From assembly GCA_017454905.1 (NCBI GenBank), contig JAFTCB010000062.1, forward strand, positions 186,001-250,000: 64,000 bases of DNA, written 5' to 3'. A program made the translations under genes and the position numbers. Source of the stretch: Bacteroidales bacterium. Its GTDB lineage: Bacteria > Bacteroidota > Bacteroidia > Bacteroidales > UBA932. Shown here one piece after another: positions 23,240-60,931 of the stretch; positions within the stretch are counted from its first letter, which is position 1, and each line of letters begins with the position of its first letter. The notes beneath the pieces were generated by a model. It made no database searches. It had not been told where the DNA came from and saw only the letters and a list, made by a program, of their open reading frames with translations.

Positions 23240-23279
23240 AAACAAAGAAGCCCGGCCAGTCGGCCGGGCTTCTTTGTTT
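23240..23279. terminator. Bidirectional intrinsic terminator between A2M and the nucleoside kinase
   Basis: A perfect 18-bp stem (AAACAAAGAAGCCCGGCC at 23240-23257, complement at 23262-23279) with a 4-base loop. A- and T-rich ends on each side make it work for both convergent genes. Confidence 0.95.
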
Positions 23280-59406: not shown

Positions 59407-60516
59407 TCACGCTCCCTTCAACTTCTGTCGACGCGTCTCGGCGGAGTCGTGGCCGAAGAGCAGGCGCGGCCCTTCGGCGGCACGCCATGCCTTGCTGTCG
59501 AATTCTTCCGGATCCCGGGGACTTACATACGGTCCATCGTGGTCGATCACGAATGACAGGTACGTAATCGGGTAGCCCTGCTCCAGGAACAGCTTTTCGT
59601 AGAATGTCTGCACCTCCCGCGTCACCGGCGGAATCTCCGGAGTAGAATCAGCCGGAGCGGCAGTCGCCCCGGAAAACCGTGCCACCCTCGGCATCGTAAG
59701 AGGGGGGACCGCAAGCGAAGCGCAGCGGTGGGGTCCGACGGAGGAGGACGTTTTCATGGGTGAGCTGCCGGACGGCGCTACTTCGGAGATTCCGTACAGA
59801 TCCGTGGTGTGGGCCAGGATGCGCAGGTTGTTGGCGCGGCAGACAGCCAGGGTGTATTCGTGCAGGAAGCGCGAGTCGGTCTTGAGGTGGACGATGCCGC
59901 CCGGCCGCAGGAAACTGCGGTAACGCTCCAGGAAGAGCGGAGACGACAGGCGGGAATTCTCGCTGCGGAACTGCGGGTCGGAGAAGGTCAGCCAGACCTC
60001 GGAGACTTCGCCCGGCGCAAAAAAGGCCGTGATGAATTCCACGCGGGTCCGCAGGAAGGCCACGTTCGGCAGGCGGTGCTCCGACGCATACTTCGCTCCC
60101 TTCCACAACCGCGCCCCCTTGATATCCACGCCGATATAATTCTGCTCCAGATTCCGCTCCGCAAGGGCGATCGTATACTCCCCCTTCCCGCATCCCAGCT
60201 CCAGGACGATATTGCATTTGCCGGGTGCTGCGGAATCGGCAGTCGCCTCAGAAAACCGTAGCCGCCCTCGGCTCGTAAGAGGGAGGGGCCCGCCGCTTTG
60301 CGGTGGGAAGGGTCCGGCATCGCCGGACGTTTTCTGAGGCGAGCTGCCGTGAAGCGAAGCATCCGGCAAACCCGCAAAAAATTGGTTCCAGTGGCCTTTG
60401 ACGGCGTGGTCGCGCAGGTGGAAGTAGCCGTCGGCGAGGAGTTCCTGCGCCGAGGGCTGCAGGAGGCAGGAGAACGTCTCGTTCTCCGCGAATTTACGCA
60501 ATTTATCGTGTCCCAT
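59407..60516 (-). CDS. trmB: tRNA (guanine-N7)-methyltransferase with two in-frame insertions
   Basis: Methylates G46 of tRNAs using S-adenosylmethionine. It is recognised from VLELGCGKGEYTIALAE (SAM site), NYIGVDIKGARLWKGAKYA, VWLTFSDPQ, HLKTDSRFLHEYTL, and the Bacteroidetes C-terminus (TFYEKLFLEQGYPITYLSFVI). At 369 residues it is about 100 longer than usual. The excess is largely two 37-residue inserts encoded by palindromic elements, at residues 57-93 (before the SAM site) and 250-286 (before the C-terminal helix). Both leave the frame intact. The start at MGHDKLRKFAEN overlaps the gldH end by 14 bases. Confidence 0.92.
   Translation of the reverse strand: MGHDKLRKFAENETFSCLLQPSAQELLADGYFHLRDHAVKGHWNQFFAGLPDASLHGSSPQKTSGDAGPFPPQSGGPLPLTSRGRLRFSEATADSAAPGKCNIVLELGCGKGEYTIALAERNLEQNYIGVDIKGARLWKGAKYASEHRLPNVAFLRTRVEFITAFFAPGEVSEVWLTFSDPQFRSENSRLSSPLFLERYRSFLRPGGIVHLKTDSRFLHEYTLAVCRANNLRILAHTTDLYGISEVAPSGSSPMKTSSSVGPHRCASLAVPPLTMPRVARFSGATAAPADSTPEIPPVTREVQTFYEKLFLEQGYPITYLSFVIDHDGPYVSPRDPEEFDSKAWRAAEGPRLLFGHDSAETRRQKLKGA
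59659..59769 (-). repeat. In-frame palindromic element, copy A (111 bp)
   Basis: Bounded by GGCAGTCGCCCCGGAAAAC on the plus strand and GGCAGCTCACCCATGAAAAC on the minus strand, which are imperfect terminal inverted repeats. Length is 111 bases, exactly 37 codons of trmB, read as GSSPMKTSSSVGPHRCASLA followed by 17 more residues ending RFSGATA. It aligns end to end with copy B at 60238-60348. Confidence 0.85.
60238..60348 (-). repeat. In-frame palindromic element, copy B (111 bp)
   Basis: Ends are GGCAGTCGCCTCAGAAAAC (plus) and GGCAGCTCGCCTCAGAAAAC (minus), a near-perfect terminal inverted repeat. Inside are further hairpins: GTCCGGC-ATC-GCCGGAC (60312-60328) and CCCGCCGC-TTT-GCGGTGGG. Length is again 111 bases, 37 codons of trmB, read as GSSPQKTSGDAGPFPPQSGG followed by 17 residues ending RFSEATA. 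Confidence 0.88.
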
Positions 60517-60931
60517 CTTGCTTCTTGTAAATAACGCCGAGCCCCAGGAAATCCTCCCCCACATCCACCGGACGCACGCTCAACTGCCACTGCCCGGCTT
60601 CCGCCGGCAGCATCCCGCTGCGGTACCGCTCCTTCGTTCCCCGGGTATCCACCGACCGCATATACACCGTCTCCGAGAAACCGTTCCCGGACGGAGCCAG
60701 CCACTGGACATTCAGCCGCACATTATGGACCGGCGTCATCCCGACCCGGCTGTAAAACCAGAAATCATAGGCCGCAGTCGTATCCGTCAGCGGCAAAGAA
60801 AAGACATACACCCCGTCCCGTGCATCTTCCCGGCGGATGAACGTCTCCATCCCGTCCGGCTCCGAACAGGCAGGCAGCATCCCGGCCAGGATGCAAAGCG
60901 CCAGACAGGCACCTATCCCCCGGGACTTCAT
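60503..60931 (-). CDS. gldH: GldH-family lipoprotein
   Basis: A 142-residue lipoprotein (signal ending LAGMLPAC, Cys near residue 22) of the GldH family, named from flavobacterial gliding but kept in many non-gliding Bacteroidales. Typical text is DTTAAYDFWFYSRVGMTPVHNVRLNVQW and a C-terminal QLSVRPVDVGEDFLGLGVIYKK. It starts directly after the ricT-like stop codon, the usual neighbour in this phylum. Its role outside gliding is not known. Confidence 0.86.
   Translation of the reverse strand: MKSRGIGACLALCILAGMLPACSEPDGMETFIRREDARDGVYVFSLPLTDTTAAYDFWFYSRVGMTPVHNVRLNVQWLAPSGNGFSETVYMRSVDTRGTKERYRSGMLPAEAGQWQLSVRPVDVGEDFLGLGVIYKKQDGTR

What the first reader, a model, noticed from the sequence alone, without database searches (positions are those of the whole stretch)
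59659..60348. Two 111-bp palindromic elements inserted in frame in trmB
trmB carries two copies of a 111-base element (59659-59769 and 60238-60348). Both have terminal inverted repeats of about 20 bases (GGCAGCTCGCCTCAGAAAAC type), internal hairpins and exactly 37 codons, and both read GSSPxKTS...GP...PLT..R..RFSxATA without breaking the enzyme. This parallels the Rickettsia palindromic elements that insert in genes in frame, but I know of no described equivalent in Bacteroidales. The low shared identity in the middle with conserved ends suggests two independent, old insertions of a family, presumably mobilised in trans.
Basis: partly seen in the sequence, partly recalled or inferred. Interest (0 to 1): 0.72.

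Follow-up and report, generated by a model that had tools for sequence, protein, structure and literature searches.

The report
Gene-inserting hairpin elements in gut Bacteroidales
A tRNA-modifying enzyme gene in a gut bacterium carries two copies of a short hairpin-forming DNA element that is scattered through its genome and its relatives, often inside conserved genes without breaking the reading frame, and whose outer stem is different at nearly every site.

Summary
In detail: trmB carries two in-frame, ~111-bp hairpin elements. They are not native TrmB structure but members of a dispersed family: 12 blastn hits in the own genome and model hits in 107 of 121 same-genus genomes. By a mechanical test 92 of 147 sampled copies lie in long open frames; 19 of 20 tested host ORFs match known families (RNase R, TruA, TruB, DapF, MurB, YgiQ...).

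(2) The ~28-bp outer arms are locus-specific. Within one genome, copies with ≥90% identical cores have arms barely more alike than chance, yet nearly every arm is matched by its inverted partner. Orthologous copies show matched changes on both arms, core swaps, flips and decay. In two clear cases an arm runs into conserved host codons and the other is its inverted copy.

Best reading: a mobile hairpin, like Rickettsia palindromic elements, whose arms are made and kept by template switching. The mobiliser is unknown; Y1/RAYT-like genes are candidates, without linkage.

The parts
59407..60564 (-). trmB ORF (tRNA guanine-N7 methyltransferase) with two in-frame inserts; family start MGHDK at 60516
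59658..59770 (+). element copy 1 (in the DLY...EVQTFYE loop), core strand +, antisense to trmB
59676..59734 (+). conserved core of copy 1, model R1 hit 52.5 bits, E 8.9e-11
59658..59677 (+). inner left arm of copy 1
59750..59770 (+). inner right arm of copy 1
59629..59645 (.). outer left arm of copy 1 (lies in trmB codons), 94% complementary to 59778-59794
   Evidence: pair I1
59778..59794 (.). outer right arm of copy 1 (lies in trmB codons)
   Evidence: pair I1
60237..60349 (+). element copy 2 (N-terminal loop before VLELGCGKG), core strand +, antisense to trmB
60255..60313 (+). conserved core of copy 2, model R1 hit 72.6 bits, E 1.2e-15
60237..60256 (+). inner left arm of copy 2
60329..60349 (+). 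inner right arm of copy 2
60217..60229 (.). outer left arm of copy 2 (lies in trmB codons), 12 of 13 complementary to 60358-60370
60358..60370 (.). outer right arm of copy 2 (lies in trmB codons)

Best explanation
The two inserts are copies of a mobile palindromic element with three layers. (a) A conserved 60-120-nt core, which on one strand can fold as an RNA (or single-stranded DNA) with two mutually crossing helices followed by one or two hairpins. (b) A short semi-conserved inner stem (RAAAC/GTTTY). (c) A ~20-30-bp outer stem that is different at almost every locus. Copies spread to new sites, and those that persist in genes are the in-frame, stop-free ones in tolerant loops. The outer stem is produced and continually repaired by DNA-polymerase template switching at the hairpin: the nascent strand folds back and copies one arm, sometimes on into host sequence. 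The flanks thus become inverted copies of each other, arms change in step, and the core can flip. Shown: dispersed family, in-frame placement, conserved core with covariation, locus-specific paired arms, matched arm changes between orthologs. Inferred: transposition (from near-identical cores at unrelated loci and from sites without inserts), template switching (from its published signatures), an RNA form (from G.U bias). Unknown: the mobilising enzyme, and whether the inverted copying happens at insertion or afterwards.
For: Family: 12 blastn hits in the own genome; blastn hits in 25 of 61 genomes, the 25 being among the 37 of the own genus, 0 of 24 from other families; R1 hits in 107 of 121 same-genus genomes, 1367 hits in all, up to 42 per genome with 45 candidates scored per genome. 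Sites without insert: many TrmB orthologs; the FAD-protein site in G088, G200, G103, G173; 9 of the 30 best-matching secG-mutL junctions, where stop and start nearly abut. Core: on 100 CM hits (94 distinct; 2 identical to a seed core) 98.7% of cells pair, 184 two-sided changes against 44.2 in shuffles, 0 of 500 reach it; slid controls 28-58%. The two outer pairs of helix 1 were not used to select the first set and pair in 37 of 37 distinct rows, with 8 and 7 double changes. Arms: 149 of 157 copies score >= 14 against 0.4% of 1865 mismatched arm pairs; median 28 bp. Fifty-one same-genome pairs with >= 90% identical cores have arm identity 0.55 median, random mean 0.495 (20 nt of the left arm outside the inner stem). 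Concerted change: secG-mutL arms in eight species, RlmI arms in G000/G088. Different, flipped or truncated cores at one place in relatives 79-95% identical in the main blocks. Strand sense: arm mismatches G.T 102 against A.C 46 (p 4.8e-6), also where the gene runs opposite to the core, 51:15.
Against: No two strains of one species could be compared, so no insertion was caught as young. Some apparent empty sites read as deletion remnants (G005 at site A; G032 trmB). At the FAD-protein site only G000 and G131 (score 10 each) have an inverted copy of the conserved host codons better than every cross-match (their cross maxima 8 and 9); G307 scores 8 with a cross maximum of 9, five other occupied alleles 3-6, nine empties 3-6.5. 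Some subfamilies carry constant arms (10% of the 51 pairs have arm identity >= 0.8; G083/G015 unit), so arms can also travel with the element. In the pair counts one measure goes the other way: further pair types 20 against 25.0 in shuffles, 500 of 500 shuffles as high (17 against 18.8). The G.T excess is not significant alone for sense copies (26:14) or copies outside ORFs (24:16). No mobiliser was identified. A 7-bp helix 1 with a 3-nt crossing loop is sterically tight (my judgement), so the helices may alternate rather than coexist.
Confidence: 0.6

Rival explanations
1. REP/BIME-like repeat mobilised by RAYT (Y1, TnpA-REP-like) transposases: single-stranded hairpins are cut and pasted by an HUH enzyme; the GTAG/GTGG before the core would be the tag.
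For: Y1_Tnp-like ORFs at E <= 1e-5, open frames mostly ~290-370 aa, in 58 of 121 genus genomes; one in the own genome, G000:C5, 310 aa. Y1 first-look candidates correlate weakly with copy number (rho 0.36, p 0.001, 78 of 121 genomes). Many cores begin GTAG.
Against: Only 1 R1 hit in 30 Y1 loci (92.8 kb), about what the copy density predicts (density, my estimate). GTAG is not constant (GTGG, ATGG, GTGC). REPs are 20-40 bp (PMC3733652, abstract) and I know of no locus-specific outer stem in them (recalled). The correlation is confounded by completeness and by using only the genomes listed.
Confidence: 0.25
2. A fixed structured RNA (riboswitch-like or small RNA gene) rather than a mobile element.
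For: Strong covariation and a strand-specific G.U preference.
Against: Copies sit in frame inside unrelated genes in both orientations (40 sense, 52 antisense, 55 outside long ORFs, of 147), with near-identical cores at unrelated loci of one genome; no Rfam match above chance level.
Confidence: 0.05
3. Insertion into pre-existing host hairpins: the outer stem was there before and the core landed in its loop.
For: Some occupied sites and remnants have short inverted repeats.
Against: Unoccupied FAD-protein alleles lack the inverted copy; stems are as long in ORFs (median 28 bp, n 92) as outside (27 bp, n 55), and stems of that length are not expected beforehand in coding sequence.
Confidence: 0.1
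4. The segments are native TrmB structure.
For: They lie in frame without stops.
Against: Many orthologs lack them; the same DNA lies in other genes and spacers.
Confidence: 0.01

Closest known systems
Rickettsia palindromic elements (RPE; Ogata et al. 2000, 2002, as told in PMC10969869, passages read)
   Same: Short (~150 bp) palindromic repeats, ten families, nearly half inserted in ORFs in frame.
   Different: Other phylum; no sequence comparison with RPE was made; here the outer stem is locus-specific and the conserved part is a core with crossing helices. I do not know of this being reported for RPE (recalled).
REP/BIME with RAYT (PMC3733652, passages read)
   Same: Dispersed hairpins, GTAG-like tag in many copies, Y1-like genes in many of the same genomes; REPs inside genes are reported there too.
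   Different: Several times longer, outer stem locus-specific, not clustered beside the Y1 genes sampled.
Template-switch homogenised inverted repeats (PMC8604942, PMC8794818; outlines with abstracts read)
   Same: Arm homogenisation, spacer inversion, matched multi-base changes, reverse-complement copies of neighbouring DNA.
   Different: There the repeats are local; here they surround a dispersed conserved core in many genes.
Coding palindromes of Nematomorpha mitochondria (PMC6649704, abstract read)
   Same: Perfect inverted repeats inside functional protein genes, both arms coding.
   Different: No conserved dispersed core is mentioned in the abstract.

Membership tests
Rickettsia palindromic elements | ~100-150-nt palindromic repeat, several dispersed copies | tested here: met
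Rickettsia palindromic elements | inserted in frame in protein genes | tested here: met
Rickettsia palindromic elements | sequence homology with RPE families / Rickettsia host | not tested
   no RPE sequence was compared; records with the core pattern are Bacteroidales or Bacteroidia (80 rows listed of at least 120 stretches)
REP/BIME (RAYT-associated) | 20-40-bp hairpin with constant GTAG tag | tested here: not met
   core alone ~60 nt; tag varies
REP/BIME (RAYT-associated) | copies flank a RAYT gene | tested here: not met
   1 hit in 30 Y1 loci, about background
MITE of a DDE transposon | constant terminal inverted repeats at the outer ends | tested here: not met
   outer arms near random between copies with >= 90% identical cores; exception: subfamilies with constant arms
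MITE of a DDE transposon | direct target-site duplication | tested here: inconclusive
   none reported beside the trmB copies (minimum 12 nt); flanks are inverted, not direct, repeats
Known structured RNA (Rfam 15) | match to a family | tested here: not met
   Searches (window 59500-60500; 8 loci): only matches below gathering scores, none on the element in the window
Retroelement (RT-mobilised) | reverse transcriptase in the genomes that carry copies | tested here: not met
   RVT_1 in 37 of 121; 13 genomes with >= 20 copies have none detected; MAG incompleteness limits this

The most novel reading that the evidence does not exclude
Insertion itself makes an inverted copy of the target flank: a core (as RNA or single-stranded DNA) is joined to a nicked host end, its RAAAC/GTTTY inner stem snaps back and primes synthesis on the host strand, leaving B-core-B' where ordinary transposons leave a direct target duplication. 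This would be a new insertion chemistry for a bacterial mobile element.
Probability: 0.2. Interest if true: 0.9.

Novelty: new variant of a known kind. Interest (0 to 1): 0.7.

Why it matters
In-frame palindromic 'selfish' inserts in protein genes are best known from Rickettsia, and how they insert is, as far as I recall, unexplained. Here is a second, apparently independent case with over a thousand model hits in 107 genomes, including orthologous occupied, unoccupied, flipped and decayed alleles. That makes the questions of how such elements insert, why genes tolerate them, and how template switching shapes proteins directly testable. The locus-specific but nearly always paired outer stem is a feature I know from no described repeat family (recalled, not proven).

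Tried and rejected
Native TrmB segment: rejected. Rfam RNA: no match. Reverse transcriptase as mobiliser: presence does not track copies. RAYT linkage: no clustering in 30 loci. Phage or plasmid carriage: 0 exact pattern hits in viral contigs, no blastn hit in phages; plasmids gave only 34-36-nt partial matches in 5 Azospirillum records. Intra-arm mini-hairpins: weak (mean z -0.55 against -0.11 for flanks), dropped. Fixed polarity (native arm always on one side of the core): early cases agreed, later ones (G014 trmB, by eye) did not, and core flips make it uninterpretable. I first read G005 site A and G032 trmB as empty alleles; closer reading suggests remnants. I first noted matched host-codon arms in several FAD-protein alleles by eye; the scored test clearly supports two (G000, G131), with G307 borderline. 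In one search the fixed 'right block' overlaps the left block in short empty alleles, so their scores are only a rough baseline; I used 17 of the 24 alleles printed (left out: G008, G305, G229, G109, G087, G261, G063). ORF contexts (92 of 147) are mechanical and some antisense ORFs will be spurious. Rows dropped before counts: 13 duplicate CM hits and 5 with short flanks (175 to 162 to 157), 2 of 149 with a wide gap between arm and core (147). From the first set: L026, L048, L002 and copies with a spacer above 100 nt, then L032, one L051 copy and L062 (42 to 39). One search parsed 34 of 51 TrmB loci and its output was cut; one search located the TrmB loop in 50 of 51. (G015 against G083/G012) gave few usable empty sites.

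Full report
Observation. In the trmB ORF 59407-60564 (-) (Methyltransf_4 E 1.2e-24) two palindromes lie at 59658-59770 and 60237-60349, 76% identical over 113 nt. On the + strand copy 2 folds with z -7.5 (0 of 200 shuffles as good), copy 1 with z -2.5 (4 of 200).

A family. Blastn with copy 2 gives 12 hits at E <= 2.4e-4 in the own genome, the two trmB copies included. In 61 genomes it hits 25, the 25 lying among the 37 of the own genus; 0 of 24 genomes of other families of the order have a hit. A covariance model of the core (R1; 39 copies, 60 positions) finds two hits in the window, the trmB copies. It hits 107 of 121 same-genus genomes, 47 of 53 high-quality ones, with 1367 hits in all and up to 42 per genome (45 candidates scored per genome).

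Not native. TrmB was found in 58 of 61 genus genomes, and many orthologs run without either segment. The loop DLY...EVQTFYE is a hotspot: copies of the family sit there also in G014, G080, G016, G036, G061, G018, G081 and G065, and other repeats in further species. G081 has both inserts; G014 lacks the N-terminal one.

Host genes. Of 147 copies with good arms, 92 lie in long open frames, 40 with the gene in the core's sense and 52 opposite (mechanical, some spurious). Twenty ORFs were compared with family libraries, ten per library: 19 match known families, among them RNase R, TruB, TruA, DapF, YgiQ, RsmF, MurB, DsbD and 3-dehydroquinate synthase over the curated cut-offs, and RlmI-, RlmB/TrmH- and PcrA-like proteins with strong E-values below the cut-offs. 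In RNase R, TruB, DapF and the RlmI-like protein the match is in more than one stretch. The FAD protein at L009 had no NCBIfam match at 1e-10.

Core. Two helices cross each other: NNNRGCC pairs with GGCYNNN, and the CCCNN between them pairs with the downstream NNGGG; then AGGGG and a hairpin CCC...GGG. The first set of cores was found with a filter that demanded the inner four pairs of helix 1 and helix 2. The two outer pairs of helix 1 were not demanded, yet pair in 37 of 37 distinct rows with 8 and 7 double changes. On 100 hits aligned by the model, whose structure leaves helix 1 out, 98.7% of cells pair and there are 184 two-sided changes against 44.2 in shuffles. One measure goes the other way: 20 further pair types against 25.0. 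Two of the 100 rows are identical to a seed core, and the alignment leans to helix 2 and the hairpin, which are in the model. One hairpin pair is G-U in 60, A-U in 30 and G-C in 3 of 94 rows, which points to a functional single strand of this sense. Whether the crossing helices coexist or alternate is open. Rfam has no match to the element.

Arms. Outside a short inner stem (RAAAC/GTTTY) the arms pair over a median 28 bp: 149 of 157 copies reach a score that 0.4% of 1865 mismatched pairs reach. Left arms aligned to the core show only weak consensus beyond the inner stem (145 arms). In one genome, 51 pairs with at least 90% identical cores have a median arm identity of 0.55 over 20 nt, random mean 0.495; 73% are at or below 0.6 and 10% at or above 0.8. 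So cores move and arms mostly do not, with exceptions such as the ~170-nt unit of G015/G083 that keeps its arms at three loci. Mismatches in arms are G.T 102, A.C 46. By context the ratio is 51:15 where the gene is antisense to the core, 26:14 where it is sense and 24:16 outside long ORFs; only the first is significant alone. The bias thus does not follow the host transcript.

Evolution at single loci. secG-mutL (the 30 best-matching loci of 279 genomes with a match): 9 have stop and start within a few bases, eight species share an intact element, others have decayed halves or other repeats. The middle of the arms differs between species but stays paired, e.g. AAGGTTCTATACCC/GGGTATAGAACCT against AAGGGCCTATACCC/GGGTATAGGCCCT. 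In G036, G005 and G061 (main matching blocks 79-95% identical) the same places hold different, flipped or partly deleted cores, including a second family of the same architecture (by reading the alignments). RlmI-like gene: G000 and G088 share an insert whose arms differ by matched multi-base changes; G103, G200, G120 and others have none. FAD protein: G088, G200, G103 and G173 have no insert. In G000 and G131 the conserved codons before the insert (TGCCATTTCC, CAGCATCGCC) are followed after it by their exact inverted copies, each in the lineage's own codons and better than any cross-match between alleles. G307, which has lost the core, is borderline (8 against a cross maximum of 9); five other occupied alleles show no such copy.

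Mechanism. Arm homogenisation, spacer inversion and reverse-complement copying are the published signatures of template switching at inverted repeats (PMC8604942 and PMC8794818, abstracts). I infer that this process makes and maintains the locus-specific stems. Whether it acts at insertion or afterwards is not decided. The mobiliser is unknown: reverse transcriptases do not track copy number; Y1/RAYT-like genes are common and weakly correlated with copy number (rho 0.36, 78 of 121 genomes) but not adjacent in 30 loci.

Known relatives. Rickettsia palindromic elements are the closest kind: ~150 bp, ten families, nearly half in ORFs in frame (PMC10969869, passages). No homology test with them was made. 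My paper searches listed no Bacteroidales counterpart.

Noticed in passing
L147:4124-4183 (-); L168 684-767 and 18370-18432: A second, weakly matching family with the same crossing-helix layout (CATGTCC-A-CCCCC-GGACATG-...-GGGGG-AGGGG) replaces the first family at the same insertion points in close relatives.
   Followed up: partly
trmB loop of L074, L085, L089, L092, L097; secG-mutL of L125, L131, L135, L143, L146: Unrelated short repeats of the type GTCATTTCGAGCGAAGCCGAGAAATCTC or TTCTTCGCTGCGCTCAGAATGACA accumulate in the same loops and spacers.
   Followed up: no
G000:C5:6014-6196 (L409) and 57 other genus genomes: Divergent Y1 (IS200-like, RAYT-like) ORFs, open frames mostly ~290-370 aa, one to six per genome at E <= 1e-5, without copies of this family beside those sampled, one of 30 loci excepted.
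   Followed up: partly
window 23240-23279: Perfect 18-bp inverted repeat with 4-nt loop (AAACAAAGAAGCCCGGCC), terminator-like.
   Followed up: no
5 Azospirillum plasmid records (H1-H5): 34-36-nt partial matches (~90%) to the G-rich part of the core; probably chance or an unrelated GC-rich repeat.
   Followed up: no
trmB loop of L084 (G066) and L087 (G030): Long glycine/alanine/valine-rich low-complexity expansions at the same TrmB loop, without an element there.
   Followed up: no
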